From positions 1 through 64,000 of the forward strand of contig JAJDXV010000021.1 of NCBI GenBank assembly GCA_022823085.1: a stretch of DNA of 64,000 nt, written 5' to 3'. Of this stretch, positions 3,490 through 63,114 are shown in pieces. This DNA is from Candidatus Poribacteria bacterium. GTDB taxonomy: Bacteria > Poribacteria > WGA-4E > WGA-3G. A program made the translations under genes and the position numbers. The notes beneath the pieces are model-generated. The model saw only the letters and a list, made by a program, of their open reading frames with translations. It had not been told where the DNA came from and did not search any database. Numbering within the stretch: position 1 is the stretch's first letter; each line of letters opens with the position of its first letter.

Positions 3490-3661
3490 AAAAGTTTGTA
3501 TTGCATTAACCCTACACCGTCCACCCGGACCCGGTAGGTTCGGTTTCCTAACCGAACCGGGCATAACTGAAAGATGAGGGCACTTTTAAGAGGAATCATC
3601 AATTAGATTTGGTATTATAAGTTAAGAGGTTTATTGTTAGGAAGTGCTCTTAACTTATAAC
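3490..3661. repeat. Intergenic repeats: hairpin core and AAGTTAAGAG inverted repeat
   Basis: Two structures are visible. At 3536-3558, AGGTTCGGTT-TCCT-AACCGAACC forms a hairpin whose core recurs at 63055-63078. At 3616-3661, TTATAAGTTAAGAGG pairs with a CTCTTAACTTATAA arm, and a related unit occurs inverted at 7738-7793. No gene is visible here. Confidence 0.55.
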
Positions 3662-10403: not shown

Positions 10404-11657
10404 ATGGTAACACTGACGAACCGCAAAGAAAATTTAAAAAACAGCAAAAATCCTGATCGGCTCTCTCCTATCACGGAGAGGTTTGAAGCCGTCTTCGGCA
10501 CCGCGCCGACATTTATCGCATCCGCACCAGGGAGAGTGAATCTCATCGGGGAACACACAGATTACAACGACGGGTACGTGTTTCCTGTCGCAATCAATAA
10601 ATATCTTAACATCGCTGTACGTAAGCGGTCCGACCGGCGCGTCGTCCTACACGCTTTAGATGTAAGCGAATCTTGCGATTTCTCGCTTGACGCGCGCACA
10701 CCTATTCCGCACCAGACACCAGCGTGGAGTCGTTACCTCATAGGCGTTGCGTCCTTACTACAAGCCTCTGGAAAACAGGTCGCCGGCATTGATGCCGTCA
10801 TTACAGGCGATGTCCCGATCGGCGCAGGACTCAGCTCTTCAGCGGCACTCTCAGTCGCTGCGACACTCGCTTTCTTAACCGCTGCCTCCGAAACCGCTAT
10901 ATCAGAAAACGATAAGCCGGAACTTGCAGCGTTGTGCCAACGCGTGGAACACGAATTCGCAGGCGTTAAGTGTGGAATCATGGATCAGACGATTTCACTG
11001 TTAGGACAAGAAAACTGTGGACTGTTCCTTGACTGTCGTTCGCTTGAATATGAGCACGTCCCGCTCAACCTCGCAGACCACGCTATCGCAATTTGTAATA
11101 CAAAAGTTAAACGGGAACTCGCAACCTCCGAATACAACAAACGGCGAGCCGAATGCGAAAGGGGGGTCGAAATCCTCAGACGGTGGCTACCGGGCGCTAC
11201 TTCACTTCGCGACATTACGGTAACGGATTTCAAAAAACATGAAGAAGAACTGCCGGCACTAACACAAAAGAGATGTCGGTATGTGATAGAAGAGAATGCA
11301 CGCGTGGTCGCGGCAGTCTCTGCACTCAAGTGTCGGAGCGAGGGCACCTCGTCCCGAACAGATGAATCACTGATCGCATTTGGTAATCTCATGAATGCAT
11401 CACACCACGGACTACGCGACGATTACCAAGTCAGCTGCACGGAGTTAGACCTACTTACCGACATCGCCCGCGACATCACAGGGGTCGTTGGAAGCCGTAT
11501 GACCGGTGCAGGGTTTGGCGGTTGCACTGTCAGTATTGTTCGCAACGACGCTTTGGAGACCTTTCAGACGCGCGTGACAACGGAATACCATCAAAAGACC
11601 GGTATTGAACCCGAAATTTACCTCTGTCATGTCAGCAATGGTGCACAAGTTTTTTAG
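10404..11657 (+). CDS. galK: Galactokinase
   Basis: GHMP-family kinase that phosphorylates galactose to galactose-1-phosphate, the entry to the Leloir pathway. Seen: the sugar-binding signature GRVNLIGEHTDYNDGYVFPV, the GHMP ATP-binding motif PIGAGLSSSAALSVA, the block CGIMDQTISLLG, and the C-terminal RMTGAGFGGC. It is about 30 residues longer than E. coli GalK. The first 16 or so residues (MVTLTNRKENLKN...) come from the dispersed RBS cassette read as protein, so the functional start may be later. No other Leloir genes are in the window. A ROK kinase follows after 14 bases, suggesting co-transcription. Confidence 0.93.
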   Translation: MVTLTNRKENLKNSKNPDRLSPITERFEAVFGTAPTFIASAPGRVNLIGEHTDYNDGYVFPVAINKYLNIAVRKRSDRRVVLHALDVSESCDFSLDARTPIPHQTPAWSRYLIGVASLLQASGKQVAGIDAVITGDVPIGAGLSSSAALSVAATLAFLTAASETAISENDKPELAALCQRVEHEFAGVKCGIMDQTISLLGQENCGLFLDCRSLEYEHVPLNLADHAIAICNTKVKRELATSEYNKRRAECERGVEILRRWLPGATSLRDITVTDFKKHEEELPALTQKRCRYVIEENARVVAAVSALKCRSEGTSSRTDESLIAFGNLMNASHHGLRDDYQVSCTELDLLTDIARDITGVVGSRMTGAGFGGCTVSIVRNDALETFQTRVTTEYHQKTGIEPEIYLCHVSNGAQVF

Positions 11658-12754: not shown

Positions 12755-12870
12755 GGGACCGTTTGTTTCCTGCGTCTTGTGTAGCATAGGCTGTTAGCCT
12801 GTGTCCTGTGTAGCATAAGGAGACCGTTGGTTTCCTGCGTCCTGTGTTGATAACTGATAACCACTGCCCT
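12755..12870. repeat. GTT-loop hairpin repeat and flanking repeat words
   Basis: At 12785-12803, CATAGGCT-GTT-AGCCTGTG forms a hairpin with one T-G wobble. Related hairpins with other stem sequences but the same GTT loop occur at 34053, 56328, 58808 and 62842. The words GTAGCATA, GACCGTT and TTTCCTGCGTC are repeated here. No gene. Confidence 0.6.
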
Positions 12871-13603: not shown

Positions 13604-14615
13604 TCTTGGAAGGAAATATAAAAAAATCTATTTTCTTTTATTTCTCCTCTGTTTGAGCTGCACCCTTCCGAAAAGTGAAATTACACAACCGGAGACCCCA
13701 CCCGTTACTGAGAAGGGAGCCATTGGAATTCTGTTGTCTAATCGTGAACGGGAACCCTCTCCTATCGTTGGTATCATCTATGTTAAAACGCTGGGGCGGA
13801 CCGGACAAGGGCTTGCGGAATTTCAGAGACCGTTCGGACTCGCAATAGATGAACAGAACAGAATCTACGTCGCCGATGCCGGGAACAATCGCGTACAAGT
13901 TATCGACGATACGGGAGGCTTCATCACTGAATTCGGGGGACGTGGATGGCAGAGAGGCGAGTTCGACCACCCTACAGATATAGCCTTAAGCTTCCAACGG
14001 AGTTACCGACACCTCTATGTCGCCGATACAGGGAACAATCGCGTACAATACTGCAATTTTATTGATCAGATTTTCTATGTACTTACCGAAACTGTCGACG
14101 ACACGCCGTTGGATCAACCCGAAGGCATCGGGATCGGACGCAACGGCGAAGTTTATGTCGTAGATACCCGAAATCATCGCTGGATCGAATTCAATGTCGC
14201 CGGTGTTCCAGTTGCCACACGCGGGAGTTTTGGGCGCGGGACAGAACAGTTCTGGGACCCTACAGACCTCGCCGTTGATACCCAAGGGAACATCTATATC
14301 GTTGATGCAGGCAACCATCTCATCAAAAAATACGACTTTAGTGGCAATCCTATCGGCACTTGGGGCAGTGAAGGAGACAAACTCGGCCAACTCCGAGAAC
14401 CGAAGTGTATCGCTTTAGACGATTGGAATTACCTATATGTAACCGACAGCGGCAACCGACGCATCCAAGTTTTTGCACCCGACGGCAAGAGCATTACCGA
14501 ATTCAGTGCGCCCACACTCTTAGAACCGGCAGGGATCGCAGTCTCGAAAACTGGACACGTCTTTGTGAGCGACGCGGAAGCCAACGATATAAAAGTGTTC
14601 CAAGTTTTTCGTTAA
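13554..14615 (+). CDS. NHL-repeat beta-propeller lipoprotein
   Basis: About 353 residues from ATG 13554. A lipoprotein signal (YFLLFLLCLSC) is followed by five or six NHL units of the type IYVADAGNNRVQV, DTGNNRVQY, IYIVDAGNHLIKK and LYVTDSGNRRIQV. NHL propellers usually bind proteins, RNA or polysaccharide; the target here is unknown. ATG 13554 overlaps the previous gene by 50 bases. An alternative start is ATC 13626, which sits 12 bases after GGAAGG, just past the upstream stop, and aligns with the start position of the RBS cassette. With that start the signal peptide would have a normal length. Confidence 0.8.
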   Translation: MTNKRRSSSNSGSNAANLGRKYKKIYFLLFLLCLSCTLPKSEITQPETPPVTEKGAIGILLSNREREPSPIVGIIYVKTLGRTGQGLAEFQRPFGLAIDEQNRIYVADAGNNRVQVIDDTGGFITEFGGRGWQRGEFDHPTDIALSFQRSYRHLYVADTGNNRVQYCNFIDQIFYVLTETVDDTPLDQPEGIGIGRNGEVYVVDTRNHRWIEFNVAGVPVATRGSFGRGTEQFWDPTDLAVDTQGNIYIVDAGNHLIKKYDFSGNPIGTWGSEGDKLGQLREPKCIALDDWNYLYVTDSGNRRIQVFAPDGKSITEFSAPTLLEPAGIAVSKTGHVFVSDAEANDIKVFQVFR

Positions 14616-14623
14616 CTTCCTTT

Positions 14624-17600
14624 ATGCCTATCCGACTCTTTTTCCTTGTCTCCCTCTATTTATGTCTGCTCCCACGTCTCGGAAGTCTGGCACAAGAACC
14701 CGCGGATGACGACACGAACGTCCTCGAACTTCCTACCTTTTCCGTTCTCCGAAAGATAGAGACCGTCGAACTGAAAGCCGGTGAACAGGAATTCACGGTC
14801 AAGTACGCACCGATTCTCCGAAATACCGAGCAACTAACGGAAGCGGACGGAAACAAGCTTGTCCGAAATATAGACTACCAAGTCGATTTTTATTCCGGCA
14901 AAATCACGATAGAACCACGAGGGACGACAACCTACCCGTATAAGTTGAAGATTACCTATCGGACGCTGCCCTTCGCGATTAAAGAGGTCTACAAACGCGA
15001 TCTGTACGGCGAACAAAATCTGGATAGCCAGCAGCCAGCAGCCAGCAGCCGTAGGGGCGAGGTCCCCTCGTCCGCACAGGTTGAGCAACCCAACCCCTAC
15101 GAAGGTTTCCAACAGACCCCAATAGATGATAGCCAATCACAGTTAGAAGTCTCTGGAAGCCAAACGTTCGGTATTTCGCTTGGGAGCGGACGCGGCGTGA
15201 CACCGAACCAAGAACTCCGTGTTAACGTCGAGGGGAAAGCCTCCAAAGACATCACCGTTCTGGCGTTGCTATCCGACCAAGATTTACCGATCCAACCGGA
15301 AGGGACGACAGAGAACATCCAAGACATTGACCAGAAGTTGATTCGCATCACGCATCCAAATATGAGAGGCACGTTGGGCGATTTTGAGGGCTCACTCGGT
15401 GCTTCGGAGTTTATCTTTTTTCCGCGTGCATTGGAAGGTGTTCAGGTCGAAGGCGATTACGAGTGGGGACGGTTCCATCTCATTCCGAGCGCGATTCCGA
15501 AGGGACAGTCTACCAGTTTAGTCCTCCGTGGTGAGGAGGGACGCAGCGAATATCGGCTCACGGTCGATGGACAATACGTCATCGTGAAGGCGGGAAGCGA
15601 AATCGTCTGGCTAAACGGCGAAAGGATGCGACGCGGCGAAAACAACGACTATATTATCCGTGAATACGGTGACCCGATCGTCGAATTTAACAGCAAGCAC
15701 CTGATAACGAGCAACGACACGATCCGGATCGATTTTGAATACATCTCTGAGGAACGCGCATATCAGCAGAACCTTTACGGACTCAGCAGCGTTTTCACGC
15801 TACCCGGTGAGCGCATAAGCATCGGCGCCTCTTATGCCGTTGAGACAGACCTGAAAGAACCCGATCAGGCACTCATCGCAATTACAGAGACCGACTTGGC
15901 GGCACTGCGCCAAAACATTATGGACCCGGAGGAAGACGGATCGCGCCTCATCGCACCGCAACAACATACCGTATGGGGTTTAGAGAGCAGACTCAATATC
16001 ACCGAAAGCGCGTGGATTGAAGGCGAACTCGCCTATAGCAACCTCGATAGGAATACCTATTCCACGGTAGACCGTAAAGAGGTGAGTCAGGCGTGGAAAC
16101 TGATCGGTTCCGCGGATTGGGATTTCGCAACAGGGACAGCGCGTAAGGACGAGGACACCTTGAAGAGACACCTAAGCAAAAACCCCCTACTAACAACGAA
16201 TCTCGATATACGCGCGATGGATGCCGATTTCGTGCCTGTCGGTGCCTCAAGTAGCAACCGGAGCCGTTCCCGATATGAGACGCAATACGCTAAGGAGGGG
16301 TTTGATGACGCGTTTCTGTTCGACACTGCCGGTTTCTCACGCAGCGCACAAGATGAACGAACCGTGAACTTCGACATCCGATTGACACCGATGGATTGGT
16401 TGGCGTTTGATGCCGGTGTCGGCAGGAGCGAAGAACGAGAACCGCAACGTCCCAAAACCGTTACGACAGAAACAGAGACGTTGTCAACGAGGAATGCGAC
16501 GATCCGCAATAACTTCAATTGGGGTGTAAACTTCAATCAACTTGTGGGTAGGCGTAGGAGCGAGGTCACCTCACCCCTACCACGGACAAATGATCAGGGA
16601 AGCAGTACATCGACACCAGAGGAGCGTCCAACTCCAAAAACATCGCTCCTGAACAAGTTGCCGAATCTCCGATGGGATGACTATCGGAGCAGTTCGCGTG
16701 TTGAGGGTGAAGATTCAACGCGGACGCAATCGCAACAGAAGACAAGACAGGAAGGCAACTTGTCCTATCCGCTCGGTCCGTTCAGGTTCATCGGCACATT
16801 AGGCAGATTAGAATCCACAGAGGCGCGCAATGCAACGCTTAACCGAAAACGGGACCGCGCGATGGGACGTATAGATCTCGTTGATTTCAGTTGGTTGTCC
16901 GTCAACACCAGTTATGAACTTGAGGAGGCTTTCGCGAAGGAACCGTTGCTCACTTTAGACGACGCACCGATCGGTCTATCCGATTGGCAGCGAAGTACCA
17001 CAGCGCGAACGTGGAAGGTCGGCGTGTTTTCACAGCAGAAATCTTTTCTCGGCGGCGGCGTGAATCTGCGTGCCAACCTTGCACGCCGGATGTTACAAGC
17101 ACACACCGAATTCGGGGCAAACACGACGACGCAACTCGCCGATATTAACCTGCAGTTGACACCCTTAAGCCGCGCCATTGATATAGAAGTCCGTTATGAG
17201 TTAGATAAGAAATTAACAAGCCAACGCCACGAAATCTATACCAACATCCACCCGCATACCGGTGTGCTGCTCCAACCGGGTGAAGGCTATTACGTGAAAT
17301 TGGACGATCTGCACTATGTCGAGGACCCCGAAGAAGGCACTTACATCAAAATCTACCAAAACGTCGGGGATAAACCGACAACGGCAGTAGATGCAGATTT
17401 CCGTGTCCGTTTCCAACCGCGTCAATATTTCGCACGGCGTGCCAGAGCGCGGCAACAGCAGCAACGTCCGGGCGAGGGCCCCTCATCCCTACAACCTGAT
17501 AGCCTTCGTCCAACACCAAATGCTCGTTCGGGCGAGGGCCCCTCGTCCGAACGGGTTGGGCAACCTGGCCCCCCACCCATGAGAAAGACACCCAAGCAAA

Positions 17601-18454
17601 AACACCCCTACGATAACCATCTAACACGGTTTCTGAACGCGTTGCGAGGTCAAATCCGGTTCTGGTTGACAGAAGAACAAGAGGTAGAGGATGCGGTGTC
17701 TCTGTATCTGCTCCAGAGCTTACAAGGTTCAGATACGCTTTTTGGACGGTTGAACCAGCATCATCGGCTCGAATTTTCACCCTCACCGGCGTTCAGTCTT
17801 GAGTTCAATCTCCGTACCGGTGAGACACTCAACAAGCGAATCAATAACCAAGAACGGCACAGACAGCATCACACTTGGGATGCGTCTTTCTCCGTAAATC
17901 CGACACAACGCCTCTCTGTCGGTGCCAACTATGAGCAACGTCAGGAGACAGAAAGCTACAACCAATTCGATTTTGAAAACCTTGGGCAGGAGACCGGCAC
18001 TGAAGAAAAGATGATAGACCGTTCCACAACACCTATCTCAGACCTTCACCAACTCGAGCAGACGACTGAACTGAGTCTCCGCTATCAACTGAGCAATACA
18101 TTACGATGGAGCGGTATCGGTGGCTATAAACAGACAACCGACGAGGAACAACTTGACGAGGAACCGGAAGCCAATACCCGGACCTTCTCTTATGAAAATC
18201 GGATTACATACAGCCTTATCGGCAAGGGACGGATTGATTTCAACTACAAACTCGGCTACGGTCAGAATACGGGTGGTATCCCCTTTGCACAATACACCTT
18301 TTATCAGGGTATCAGCCACGAAATCCGGACGACAGCAGACTACAGGTTGCGGAGATTCACCGACCTATTATTTCGACTCAATTACCGTCTGCTCTCCACG
18401 AAGCATCGCAAACCGGAACACCGCTTAGAGATGACAATCAGCGCGGAACTCTAA
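14624..18454 (+). CDS. Giant outer-membrane beta-barrel-like protein (SprA-related by pattern)
   Basis: 1276 residues with a signal peptide (MPIRLFFLVSLYLCLLP..., cleavage near LGSLA). The first part has IDYQVDFYSGKITI, SGSQTFGISLGSGRG, LLSDQDLPIQPEG and RGENNDYIIREY. These recall the conserved blocks of SprA-type outer-membrane translocon proteins (low to moderate certainty). The rest is long amphipathic beta-strand sequence up to the C-terminus (RLEMTISAEL). The reading frame contains low-complexity Pro/Gly/Ser stretches at about residues 133-160, 640-660 and 945-985, which coincide with palindromic repeats at DNA level. ATG 14624 is chosen because it directly precedes the signal peptide, eight bases after the NHL gene stop. 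Confidence 0.72.
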   Translation: MPIRLFFLVSLYLCLLPRLGSLAQEPADDDTNVLELPTFSVLRKIETVELKAGEQEFTVKYAPILRNTEQLTEADGNKLVRNIDYQVDFYSGKITIEPRGTTTYPYKLKITYRTLPFAIKEVYKRDLYGEQNLDSQQPAASSRRGEVPSSAQVEQPNPYEGFQQTPIDDSQSQLEVSGSQTFGISLGSGRGVTPNQELRVNVEGKASKDITVLALLSDQDLPIQPEGTTENIQDIDQKLIRITHPNMRGTLGDFEGSLGASEFIFFPRALEGVQVEGDYEWGRFHLIPSAIPKGQSTSLVLRGEEGRSEYRLTVDGQYVIVKAGSEIVWLNGERMRRGENNDYIIREYGDPIVEFNSKHLITSNDTIRIDFEYISEERAYQQNLYGLSSVFTLPGERISIGASYAVETDLKEPDQALIAITETDLAALRQNIMDPEEDGSRLIAPQQHTVWGLESRLNITESAWIEGELAYSNLDRNTYSTVDRKEVSQAWKLIGSADWDFATGTARKDEDTLKRHLSKNPLLTTNLDIRAMDADFVPVGASSSNRSRSRYETQYAKEGFDDAFLFDTAGFSRSAQDERTVNFDIRLTPMDWLAFDAGVGRSEEREPQRPKTVTTETETLSTRNATIRNNFNWGVNFNQLVGRRRSEVTSPLPRTNDQGSSTSTPEERPTPKTSLLNKLPNLRWDDYRSSSRVEGEDSTRTQSQQKTRQEGNLSYPLGPFRFIGTLGRLESTEARNATLNRKRDRAMGRIDLVDFSWLSVNTSYELEEAFAKEPLLTLDDAPIGLSDWQRSTTARTWKVGVFSQQKSFLGGGVNLRANLARRMLQAHTEFGANTTTQLADINLQLTPLSRAIDIEVRYELDKKLTSQRHEIYTNIHPHTGVLLQPGEGYYVKLDDLHYVEDPEEGTYIKIYQNVGDKPTTAVDADFRVRFQPRQYFARRARARQQQQRPGEGPSSLQPDSLRPTPNARSGEGPSSERVGQPGPPPMRKTPKQKHPYDNHLTRFLNALRGQIRFWLTEEQEVEDAVSLYLLQSLQGSDTLFGRLNQHHRLEFSPSPAFSLEFNLRTGETLNKRINNQERHRQHHTWDASFSVNPTQRLSVGANYEQRQETESYNQFDFENLGQETGTEEKMIDRSTTPISDLHQLEQTTELSLRYQLSNTLRWSGIGGYKQTTDEEQLDEEPEANTRTFSYENRITYSLIGKGRIDFNYKLGYGQNTGGIPFAQYTFYQGISHEIRTTADYRLRRFTDLLFRLNYRLLSTKHRKPEHRLEMTISAEL
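15050..15101. repeat. In-frame palindromic element (GGGG/CGAGG family), copy a
   Basis: Outer arms CGTAGGGG / CCCCTACG enclose a small hairpin CGAGG-TCC-CCTCG and another, GGTT-GAGC-AACC, giving a three-way-junction shape. It is translated as RRGEVPSSAQVEQPNPYE. A stand-alone copy of the CGAGGTCCCCTCG core is intergenic at 30626-30650. Confidence 0.7.
16548..16591. repeat. In-frame palindromic element, degenerate copy b
   Basis: GTAGGAGCGAGGTCACCTC followed by ACCCCTACCAC is a diverged member of the same family (GAGG-TCA-CCTC inner hairpin, GTAGG/CCTAC outer arms). It is translated as RRRSEVTSPLPR in the giant outer-membrane protein. Confidence 0.5.
17463..17572. repeat. In-frame palindromic elements, copies c and d
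   Basis: Two units about 59 bases apart. Copy c contains GGGCGAGGGCCCCTC. Copy d has arms CGTTCGG / CCGAACG around CGAGG-GCC-CCTCG, followed by GGTT-GGGC-AACC. They encode the near-repeat peptides RPGEGPSS and RSGEGPSS in a Pro/Gly/Ser-rich stretch. Confidence 0.65.
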
Positions 18455-18494: not shown

Positions 18495-21467
18495 CTAATT
18501 GGGCTGTTCGTCGGTATTAGTTGAACCGGTGATCGCTTCATTCCAATCCCACAAAAAGATTGTGCCGTCCTGTCCGGTACTAACCAGCGTTTCACCATCA
18601 GGCGAAAATTTTAACGTCTCCACTTGCTGCGTGTGCCCGTCAAGCGCAGCGATTCTCTCGCCAGTCTTGACATCCCATAATAGGATTGCACCGTTGGTAT
18701 GTCCACTGAGACAAATTGCGCTATCTGGTGAAAATACCAACAGTTTTGGTGAATCATGCAATATCCGCCAACCGCGTTGATGCACAGTGCTGACCGAAAA
18801 AAGTTTATGACCCGTACGCACATCCCATAAATGGAGTCGCGTGTGTGTCCCCGCAGCGAGCACGGCGCGGTCGGGTGAAAACGCCAATGCCGAAATCCGT
18901 CCCAGATTCTTTGTTCGTTCTGCAAAGACAACTAAGGGTTCACCGGTCGCAACGTCCCACATTCGGATGTGTCCATCTGCAGTACCACTCACAAGCCATC
19001 TACCATCTGACGAAAACGCCATTGCCAAAACCACTGGTAGATTGCCGCGAAAGCCGGGTTTCAAGTCATCATTATCATCATTAACAGGAATTATCAATTC
19101 AGTGCCTGTTTCCGTATGCCACAAACGAATGTCAAGCATGCTATTAATCGCTACAGTTTTAGTTCTATCGTCAGGAGAAAAAAGGAGTTTGCGGCTCCCA
19201 CGCTGCAACGTCGCAAGTTCGTCTCCAGTCGATACATCGGTCAACCGAATTAGATCATCTGGCTTCGTAGCAGAGAACCCAGCAGGGTACCCACTGAAAA
19301 CGACAGTACCATCTGCCGCTACACTGACGAGTTTCGTGCCATCCGGCGAAAACGCCACTGCTGAATACCAATCCCGATGTCCGCTATTTTGGACAGCGGA
19401 CTTTTGCGCTGTGTCCGTATCCCAAAAGGTAATTTCACCGTTAAACGCCGTACTAACAAGTGTGGAACTGTTTTGCCCACTGTCCTGAAAAAAGGTCGCC
19501 GCTTTTATGGATTGTGTGTGTCCAGTGATAAGATTATCAAGCGGTGTCCCGGTCTCTATATCCCAGAACCGGATTGTGCCATCCGTACTTCCGCTGACGA
19601 GTGTACGACCATCGGGTGAAAATGCTAACGCAGCAATACCGTTGATATGTCCGGTGAGTGTCGCGATCGGTTCACCATGCGTCGTGTCCCACAATTGAAC
19701 TGTTTTATCCGTGCTGCCGCTGGCAAGCGTTTTTCCATCGGGTGAAAACGCCAGGACATTTGTCGCGCCAGTATGTTGCTGCAGTAGCATCGAATCCCTG
19801 TCACCAGTCGTATTCCACAATCGGACTGTCGTATCTGGACTGCCACTTGCCAGACGCGTGCCATCCGGCGAAAACGCCACTGCTAAAACCCGATTTTTTT
19901 TGAACATGCGCTGCACAGGTTTATCCAACGGCTGAAGCGGCAAATCTATGTGTCCTCTGAGCGTCGATAGCTTTTTACGGGTTGCTACATCCCACAACTG
20001 GATCATCCCGTCCTGTTTTCCAATCGCGATTCTATCGTTCGTCATCGCGTAAACACCCTGAAAATCCTCCGAACTAAAGAGACCGATCCCGAATAACCCA
20101 GTTTTAAGGTGCTTGGTTTTCCCTTTCCCGTTCTCAATATTCAATCGGGTAATTGCAGCATGCCCGGAACCATACAAACCGATAAGCGTTTTTCCATCTG
20201 AAGAGAATCGCAGGACGGAAGCATCCGCGTACAAGTCAATAAGTGGCACTTCGCGCTCGGTCGCGATCTCCCACAATTGGATGAGCGTATCATCAGAAGA
20301 AGCGGTAAGGAAACGACCATCCGGTGAAAAACTGAGGGCTTCACACACACCGCTACCAAACAAAGATTTCTCCTCACCTGTTTCCACATCATACAGCCAG
20401 ACCCCGATAGTGCTACCGACTGCAAGTAGGGTACCATCCGGTGAAAACTGAATTGCGGTAATCCCACCTTTCCCGAAGCGCGCTTCCGCCGCTTTGGGCA
20501 ACTTCCAATGTGCGTGGTTCTTAGATGTCTCATCTGATTCTGCTTCTGCAACCGATGCCGAAACATCGTTAGGCGGCTGGCTTGCCGTATCCCCCTCGCT
20601 CGGTGTACTAACATTTCCGAGTTGCGTCCGAATATCTGGTTTGGATTCAAGATTTAGCACAACAGCTGCCTCAACGAGCTCAACTGTCATCTCTGATGGC
20701 GCGTCGAAACTATACGGCTTTTGGAAACGCGACAGGTATTGGTGGTTGCCGATACCTAACATCAAAAGCACGACTGCCAGTGTGGAAACACCGACTGCCC
20801 ACGGCACTAACGGCTTGCTGCTTGATGGTGCAACCGGCTTCAGACGTGAGACCTCTTGCATGATGTTCTCTGTGAGATTCGGTGAGATTTGGAAATGGTC
20901 GAGTGCTTCTCTAATCATCGGTTCCTCCTCTTTTAAACGGTTCCGCGCACGCCTCAGACGACTTTTAATGGTGCTCGCCGATACGCCTAAAAATCGGCTA
21001 ATATCTTCAACTTTCATCTCACCAAGATAGTAGAGTGTCATTACTGTGCGTTCACTCTCTTTCAACTTCGCGAGCAATTTCTTGACCACCTCGCGTTGTG
21101 ATTCCGCGACAGTCTTTGTCCGTTCCGCTACAACGTGTCGGGAATAAGCATCTTCTTGTATCATCGTTGCGTCTGTGCCCTCCAACGGTTGTGTTTGTAT
21201 CCGTTTTTTGCGAAGCCACGTGGCGCATAAGTTTGCCGTAATCACATACAGCCACCCAGAAAACTGGTTCGGGTCCTTCAGTGTTGAGAGTCTCTGGTAC
21301 ACTTTCAGAAAAGCGTCTTGCGTGATGTCCTCAGCGATATGGAAATCCCCAACTTTTCGCCAAGCGAGCGCATGAACCGGCTTTTGATATTTATTCACAA
21401 GTTCGGCAAAAGCCCTTTCATCACCAGCGAGAACACGTCGAACAATCGCAACATCGTCATTTTTCAT
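18495..21467 (-). CDS. ECF-type sigma factor fused through a membrane segment to a WD40 propeller domain
   Basis: 990 residues. Sigma-70 region 2 at about 10-90 (AEDITQDAFLKVYQRL, FSGWLYVITANL) and region 4 at about 135-180 (LGVSASTIKSRLRRARNRL) are intact. One hydrophobic helix (VPWAVGVSTLAVVLLMLGI, about 221-240) follows. Residues about 325-985 hold many WD40 units of the type AFSPDGTRLASGS...VRLW. The layout suggests a membrane-tethered sigma factor whose cytoplasmic or periplasmic propeller senses a signal, perhaps released by cleavage (inference). The ribosome-binding site GGAGG lies 8-9 bases before the ATG. A candidate ECF promoter (GCAACC, 16 bases, CGTC) lies upstream, suggesting autoregulation. 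Confidence 0.9.
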   Translation of the reverse strand: MKNDDVAIVRRVLAGDERAFAELVNKYQKPVHALAWRKVGDFHIAEDITQDAFLKVYQRLSTLKDPNQFSGWLYVITANLCATWLRKKRIQTQPLEGTDATMIQEDAYSRHVVAERTKTVAESQREVVKKLLAKLKESERTVMTLYYLGEMKVEDISRFLGVSASTIKSRLRRARNRLKEEEPMIREALDHFQISPNLTENIMQEVSRLKPVAPSSSKPLVPWAVGVSTLAVVLLMLGIGNHQYLSRFQKPYSFDAPSEMTVELVEAAVVLNLESKPDIRTQLGNVSTPSEGDTASQPPNDVSASVAEAESDETSKNHAHWKLPKAAEARFGKGGITAIQFSPDGTLLAVGSTIGVWLYDVETGEEKSLFGSGVCEALSFSPDGRFLTASSDDTLIQLWEIATEREVPLIDLYADASVLRFSSDGKTLIGLYGSGHAAITRLNIENGKGKTKHLKTGLFGIGLFSSEDFQGVYAMTNDRIAIGKQDGMIQLWDVATRKKLSTLRGHIDLPLQPLDKPVQRMFKKNRVLAVAFSPDGTRLASGSPDTTVRLWNTTGDRDSMLLQQHTGATNVLAFSPDGKTLASGSTDKTVQLWDTTHGEPIATLTGHINGIAALAFSPDGRTLVSGSTDGTIRFWDIETGTPLDNLITGHTQSIKAATFFQDSGQNSSTLVSTAFNGEITFWDTDTAQKSAVQNSGHRDWYSAVAFSPDGTKLVSVAADGTVVFSGYPAGFSATKPDDLIRLTDVSTGDELATLQRGSRKLLFSPDDRTKTVAINSMLDIRLWHTETGTELIIPVNDDNDDLKPGFRGNLPVVLAMAFSSDGRWLVSGTADGHIRMWDVATGEPLVVFAERTKNLGRISALAFSPDRAVLAAGTHTRLHLWDVRTGHKLFSVSTVHQRGWRILHDSPKLLVFSPDSAICLSGHTNGAILLWDVKTGERIAALDGHTQQVETLKFSPDGETLVSTGQDGTIFLWDWNEAITGSTNTDEQPN

Positions 21468-30576: not shown

Positions 30577-30685
30577 AAAGTCAAGAATTAAAAAGACATT
30601 TTAGTGATTTCCGAGACCAACCCTCGTAGGGGCGAGGTCCCCTCGCCCGCTGTGAAGTGTCTCATTAATTATGAGATCCACTATA
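30571..30685. mobile_element. MITE family M1, copy A (core GGGCGAGGTCCCCTCGCCC)
   Basis: The ends are TATAGTAAAGTCAAGAATTAA and, reversed, TATAGTGGATCTCATAATTAA, with inner GAGACA/AAGACA words. The core is the palindrome GGGCGAGG-TCC-CCTCGCCC. Copies B (39034-39151) and C (63012-63114) have the same ends but unrelated palindromic cores. Confidence 0.6.
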
Positions 30686-58583: not shown

Positions 58584-58985
58584 TTTAATCGGTCGTCACC
58601 TCTTTTCGTTTTACAGCAATTAGGAAAATATCAGGTTTCATATTTTTTCTTCATCTGGTGTATTTGAAAACAGCACCAAATTAGATCCGGCGTAAAAGTC
58701 AACCTAAGCACAGAACATTATTATAAATAATAGCACATTCTCGGATTGTTTTCACTATTTTTTCGTTTCTCATTCAGGCGGACACGGCAAATAAGTTTAC
58801 ACACGTAGCATAGACTGTTAGTCTGTGCCAAACGACTTGTTCCAACGCAAACCTACACTGTAGCATAAACTTTATCGACAAAATGTTTACACACCCGCAA
58901 ACCCGCGAAACGATTTGATATAAACCGTAAACTATGGTAAAATATTGGTGCAAGATTAACAAATTTAATTATGGAGGATATTATT
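58584..58985. other. Intergenic region with GTT-loop hairpin and promoter
   Basis: No gene. Visible: the hairpin GCATAGACT-GTT-AGTCTGTGC (58808-58828), the word GTAGCATAAACT again at 58859, and the promoter at 58915. Confidence 0.6.
58915..58943 (+). promoter_or_regulatory. Sigma70-type promoter for the intact DUF433/DUF5615 pair
   Basis: TTGATA (58915-58920), 17 bases, TAAAAT (58938-58943), 42 bases before ATG 58986. Confidence 0.55.
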
Positions 58986-63011: not shown

Positions 63012-63114
63012 TATAGTGAAACCTAAAAATAAAGAGACACTTTCCTCCCCCGGTAGGTTCGGTTTCCTAACCGAACCTATGCAAAGTGTTCCATTAATTC
63101 TAAACTTTACTATA
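63012..63114. mobile_element. MITE family M1, copy C (core AGGTTCGGTTTCCTAACCGAACCT)
   Basis: Ends TATAGTGAAACCTAAAAATAA and, reversed, TATAGTAAAGTTTAGAATTAA, with inner GACACTTTC/GGAACACTTTG words. The core is a perfect 10-base-pair hairpin, AGGTTCGGTT-TCCT-AACCGAACCT, the same as at 3536-3558. Confidence 0.6.

What the first reader, a model, noticed from the sequence alone, without database searches (positions are those of the whole stretch)
15050..17572. Palindromic elements inserted in frame in an outer-membrane protein gene
Four units of the CGAGG(T/G)CCCCTCG family lie inside the reading frame and are translated as Pro/Gly/Ser-rich loops (RRGEVPSS, RPGEGPSS, RSGEGPSS). The same core is intergenic in a MITE at 30626. 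This parallels Rickettsia palindromic elements but with unrelated sequence. The units fold as three-way junctions with compensated outer arms (CGTAGGGG/CCCCTACG versus CGTTCGG/CCGAACG).
Basis: partly seen in the sequence, partly recalled or inferred. Interest (0 to 1): 0.68.

Follow-up and report, generated by a model that had tools for sequence, protein, structure and literature searches.

The report
GTAG-tagged REP palindromes inside a gene
Short DNA hairpins that spread through bacterial genomes (REP elements, probably moved by a dedicated transposase) have landed in frame inside several genes of this Poribacterium-like genome and read as protein; the kind of element is known, but matched 'with' and 'without' sites suggest that each insertion swaps out 12-20 letters of the host gene, which is worth following up.

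Summary
Four units lie in frame in the 1349-aa ORF, which also holds a fifth, decayed one (16141-16189). They belong to a genome-wide family (98 core matches against 1 for a reversed control pattern). Oriented by loop, the unit is GTAG-GGGCGAGG-TYN-CCTCGYCC with a one-sided GTAG tag: the anatomy of GTAG-tagged REP elements. The 15050 unit is a REPIN (two inverted REPs). A cognate transposase (RAYT/TnpA-REP) was found in relatives: of 24 full-length genes, 19 have GTAG REPs close by and 21 carry one in frame inside their own ORF; inside and flanking families match (p=0.0005). This fits published TnpA-REP subclass 2.4. The window's genome has lost that transposase or has it in the missing 8%. 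The family also sits in frame in galactokinase, an altronate dehydratase-like gene, branching enzyme and others. Orthologues supply empty sites, so the peptides are acquired. In eight filled/empty comparisons at seven coding sites, 27-35 nt replaced 12-20 nt of host sequence (net +12/15/18, no target duplication seen). The Rickettsia parallel holds as a phenomenon. The element is a known kind; the replacement-like footprint is the part worth pursuing.

The parts
14405..18454 (+). Host gene, 1349-aa ORF of unknown family (true start probably near 14615)
   Evidence: orthologues in 71 of 79 genomes searched
15051..15073 (+). GTAG REP (GTAGGGGCGAGGTCCCCTCGTCC), read as RRGEVPSS; first half of a REPIN
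15078..15100 (-). Second, inverted GTAG REP of the same REPIN (GTAGGGGTTGGGTTGCTCAACCT)
   Evidence: the same REP type stands beside a RAYT in L331
16141..16189 (+). Decayed fifth element (CGTAAGGACGAGGACACC...AAGCAAAAACCCCCTAC)
   Evidence: orthologues L034, L035, L055 have intact units at this site
16554..16580 (+). Decayed 'double foot' REP, read as RRSEVTSPL
17466..17492 (+). Decayed REP, read as RPGEGPSSL; empty site known in relatives
17525..17553 (+). REP with changed but complementary outer arms (CGTTCGGG/TCCGAACG), read as RSGEGPSS
17554..17612 (+). Remainder of the long form (GGTTGGGCAACC ... AAGCAAAAACACCCCTACG)
   Evidence: compare L009
11331..11356 (+). Decayed REP in frame in galactokinase (CRSEGTSSR)
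30626..30648 (+). Intergenic REP of the same family beside a MITE terminal repeat

Best explanation
The units are GTAG-tagged REP elements: unit GTAG-GGGCGAGG-TYN-CCTCGYCC, a 27-nt 'double foot' form GTAGGGGCGAGGNNNCCTCGCCCCTAC, and an inverted-pair REPIN form at 15050. They belong with a RAYT/TnpA-REP resembling published subclass 2.4 (RAYT group 4), a single-strand HUH-tyrosine transposase that recognises GTAG plus hairpin and, acting in trans, spreads copies through the genome. Copies landing in coding sequence are kept only where the frame stays open and the stretch is tolerant; they are then read as R-R-G-E-x-x-S-P-L or V-G-A-R-x-P-R-P-Y. Shown: element anatomy, genome-wide family, cognate transposase loci in relatives, acquired in-frame inserts, empty sites. 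Inferred: that the RAYT does the moving, that the peptides are made and neutral, and that the window's genome (or its ancestor) once had the RAYT.
For: One-sided tag: oriented by loop, 5' GTAG in 30 of 35 own-genome copies and 3' CTAC in 3 of 35; loops TTN/TCN; a G.T pair in most 3' arms. Cognate RAYT: 24 full-length genes, 19 with a GTAG hairpin within 450 nt, 21 with one inside the ORF, 18 both; inside and flanking families match within loci (0.944 versus 0.774 shuffled, p=0.0005). L332, L338, L339 and L350 have exactly this family beside the gene. NCBIfam's REP-associated tyrosine transposase model hits the L135 protein, below its cut-off (68 versus 80 bits). Same-genus genomes with such a RAYT hold more copies (33 versus 18, p=0.0045, groups taken). 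In-frame copies in five further genes and at about nine positions of this gene across 30 genomes. Published subclass 2.4 has these same features (PMC6006769).
Against: No RAYT of this type in the window's genome (0 hits, 91.8% complete) although it has about 50 copies; some high-copy relatives (G039, G042, G025) also lack a strong hit. No movement was observed. Replacement of 12-20 nt of host DNA is not what IS200/IS605-type insertion predicts.
Confidence: 0.86

Rival explanations
1. A palindromic parasite of unknown mechanism, analogous to Rickettsia palindromic elements or cyanobacterial small dispersed repeats, unconnected with any RAYT.
For: The window's genome has no RAYT of this type; no shared gene family stood out near 118 dispersed copies; the first 23 Y1 loci sampled had another REP or none nearby, with one distant exception.
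Against: The same family stands beside and inside subclass 2.4-like RAYT genes in many relatives and in a Chloroflexi contig; tag, loop and stem fit GTAG REPs.
Confidence: 0.07
2. Hitch-hiking: the units spread mainly as passengers of a MITE with terminal inverted repeats.
For: Many intergenic copies in this genome and in G025 lie within a MITE with ends like GTGTCTNATTAATT...CCACTATA.
Against: Coding copies are naked 27-31-nt units without MITE sequence; copies at RAYT loci are naked too.
Confidence: 0.04
3. The peptides are ancestral and functional, conserved for protein reasons, and the palindromes are a by-product.
For: The RGE frame predominates in this gene (about 8 of 9 positions).
Against: The peptides are absent in most orthologues, occur at different positions and in two frames, and the same DNA is intergenic elsewhere.
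Confidence: 0.03

Closest known systems
REPs and REPtrons of TnpA-REP subclass 2.4 / RAYT group 4 (Quentin et al. 2018, PMC6006769)
   Different: The window's genome lacks the transposase; in-frame copies in several unrelated host genes with matched empty sites are documented here
GTAG-tagged REPs, including intragenic ones (Di Nocera et al. 2013, PMC3733652)
   Same: Anatomy, TY loops, G.T pairs, inverted dimers, in-frame copies inside genes (for example O. terrae)
   Different: The sequence GTAGG... is not in the text searched; the figure with the 24 family consensuses could not be read here, so one of them may match
Rickettsia palindromic elements
   Same: Palindromes in frame in protein genes, tolerated by the proteins
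   Different: 105-146 bp (PMC2229807), unrelated sequence, no RAYT link; RPE-4/-6 are classed as CGTC-type REPs in PMC3733652
Small dispersed repeats of Nostoc (Elhai et al. 2008; from memory, paper not held)
   Same: 21-27 nt hairpins, found inside minitransposons and heptamer repeats
   Different: As I recall, not described as coding inserts with a cognate RAYT

Membership tests
GTAG-tagged REP | GTAG (or GTGG) tetranucleotide 0-2 nt 5' of a hairpin | tested here: met
   30 of 35 own-genome and 19 of 20 G025 copies
GTAG-tagged REP | Fully paired stem of 7-20 nt, loop of 2-5 nt, GC-rich stem base | tested here: met
   8-bp stem GGGCGAGG, 3-nt loop; rule from PMC6006769
GTAG-tagged REP | Many dispersed copies, mostly extragenic | tested here: met
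   about 50 places in 5.2 Mb; most outside long ORFs
GTAG-tagged REP | Association with a RAYT gene | tested here: met
   in relatives; not in the window's own genome
TnpA-REP subclass 2.4 REPtron | REPs in frame inside the transposase gene between HUH and Y motifs | tested here: met
   21 of 24 full-length genes, after MPNHxHGI; feature
TnpA-REP subclass 2.4 REPtron | Phylogenetic placement of the transposase in subclass 2.4 | not tested
   no tree with reference subclasses was built; assignment rests on features
TnpA-REP subclass 2.4 REPtron | Transposase binds and cleaves the REP | not testable with these tools
   needs biochemistry
Rickettsia palindromic element (RPE-1 type) | 105-146 bp unit | tested here: not met
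   27-nt unit, long form about 50-75 nt; size of RPE
MITE | Terminal inverted repeats with target-site duplication | tested here: not met
   coding copies show no duplication but loss of 12-20 nt

The most novel reading that the evidence does not exclude
REP dissemination proceeds by replacement rather than insertion: a REP strand (or copied hairpin) is captured in place of 12-20 nt of target DNA, without target duplication, so filled and empty coding sites record the footprint of a process whose mechanism is still unknown.
Probability: 0.35. Interest if true: 0.62.

Novelty: new member of a known kind. Interest (0 to 1): 0.42.

Why it matters
How REPs spread is an open question (PMC8266576 calls their dissemination mechanisms poorly understood). 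Conserved coding genes in dozens of closely related genomes give filled and empty sites that extragenic REPs seldom offer. One altronate dehydratase site holds two different GTAG-type palindromes in different relatives and the empty state in others. It also shows selfish DNA supplying new peptide segments to ordinary enzymes.

Tried and rejected
IS605-type TnpA of the own genome as mover: no such unit at its ends. First 23 Y1 loci sampled: those with REPs mostly have another family, GTAGGTTCGGTTTCCTAACCGAAC; only the L135 lead exposed the right group. Shared gene near dispersed copies: none. Lost target segments being pre-existing hairpins: ranks 0.04-1.0 among random windows, not convincing. 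Short-patch illegitimate recombination as the route: no usable literature found. Plasmid vehicle: 5 of 72,556 plasmids have a RAYT homologue. Structure of the host protein: failed. Frame bias: the RGE frame predominates in this gene, but outside it the split is about 15 to 7 by my count, not significant. Widening the RAYT search by phylum: only one genome was held there.

Full report
Observation. The ORF at 14405-18454 holds four copies of the core read in frame as RRGEVPSS, RRSEVTSPL, RPGEGPSS and RSGEGPSS. The core occurs 11 times in the window against 2.05 expected and 98 times in the genome against 1 for the reversed pattern (being nearly palindromic, many places count on both strands, so about 50 places). 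A fifth, decayed unit lies at 16141-16189, where orthologues have intact ones, and one lies in galactokinase at 11331. Folding as DNA supports a three-way junction for 15050 only; 17525 is a simple long hairpin, the other two have decayed.

What the unit is. Copies from the whole genome, oriented by their loop, carry GTAG at the 5' foot in 30 of 35 cases and CTAC at the 3' foot in 3 of 35; in relative G025, 19 of 20 have GTAG. The loop is TTN or TCN and the arms often close with a G.T pair. This is the anatomy published for GTAG-tagged REPs (PMC3733652). The palindromic 27-mer is the 'double foot' form described in PMC6006769, and the 15050 unit is two inverted GTAG REPs, 15051-15073(+) and 15078-15100(-), that is a REPIN. 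The three-way junction follows from both REPs beginning with GTAGGGG.

Distribution. The 27-mer occurs in 118 stretches of the genome collection before the scan stopped at its limit, including records named Poribacteria, Chloroflexi, Acetothermia, Planctomycetes, Nitrospirae, Cyanobacteria (Phormidium), Zixibacteria and others; chance expectation by my arithmetic is below 0.01. Among 79 genomes searched, copy number of the 20-mer (both strands) ranges from 0 to 139 and the reversed control is 0 in all.

Cognate transposase. The only Y1 transposase in the own genome is an IS605-type TnpA next to a TnpB. The first RAYT-like genes sampled in relatives have another REP family or none nearby. A Chloroflexi contig, L135, has a 203-aa RAYT with the 27-mer just upstream and a REP pair in frame inside its ORF. 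Homologues were then found in 44 of 79 genomes, but not in G000. Of 24 full-length genes, 21 have a GTAG hairpin inside the ORF after the HUH motif (MPNHxHGI), 19 have one within 450 nt outside, and inside and outside families match (p=0.0005). A genome of another phylum shows the same arrangement with different stems, for example VVGATRRVAPT in L361 from GTAGGGGCGACCCGCCGGGTCGCCC. This in-frame self-insertion is already published as unique to subclass 2.4, which is scattered over phyla. Same-genus genomes with the RAYT have more copies (33 versus 18; p=0.0045); relatedness was not corrected for.

Coding inserts. In the own genome, internal in-frame copies lie in this gene, galactokinase, an FG-GAP-like protein (L009), an altronate dehydratase-like protein (L196), a branching enzyme (L201) and an unknown 846-aa frame (L029) (names by my reading of the sequences). 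Other genomes have many more. Two frames are stop-free and both are used; the third reads TAG. In this gene about nine alignment positions carry GTAGGGG hairpins among 30 genomes, about eight of them in the RGE frame.

Filled and empty sites. In eight comparisons at seven coding sites (flank identity about 81-98% where measured), an acquired segment of 27-35 nt takes the place of 12-20 nt of host sequence: CAAC-GTGAATCAATGTTGA-AACG becomes CAAC-[27 nt]-AACG (lost 15, net +12), and GCGCA-AAAATCCACCAT-CCAAAA becomes GCGCA-[30 nt]-CCAAAA (lost 12, net +18). Lengths were read by me from the alignments. One intergenic site lost only about 2 nt, so part of the coding loss could be later length adjustment or selection; replacement is suggested, not proven. 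At the altronate dehydratase site relatives show an empty state, this family, or a second palindrome GTAGGAGGGGTTTGTAACCCC.

Judgement. The finding is correct and its interpretation essentially right, but the elements fall into a described kind: GTAG REPs of a subclass 2.4-type RAYT, for which intragenic in-frame copies are published. New here are the Poribacterial family with its coding inserts, the absence of the RAYT from the window's genome, and the replacement-like footprints. Interest is moderate for that reason.

Noticed in passing
window 3534-3557 and 63053-63076: A second GTAG REP family, GTAGGTTCGGTTTCCTAACCGAAC, which in relatives lies near a different RAYT group.
   Followed up: partly
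window 12781-12803 and 58805-58827: A third GTAG hairpin family, GTAGCATARRCTGTTAGYCTGTG, with five related copies in the window.
   Followed up: no
window 15023-15049: Heptamer tandem repeat (AGCAGCC) directly before the REPIN, in frame; orthologues have similar heptamers in the same loop, so tandem-repeat DNA also seems to be read as protein there. Not tested statistically.
   Followed up: partly
L036, orthologue of the host gene: A different, about 48-nt GC-rich palindrome in frame at the site of window 16141.
   Followed up: no
L349: A RAYT open frame with about eight GTAG REPs inside it.
   Followed up: no
window 18495-21467: Neighbouring sigma-factor/WD40 gene; relatives have the REP in frame at two of its sites, which are empty here.
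   Followed up: partly
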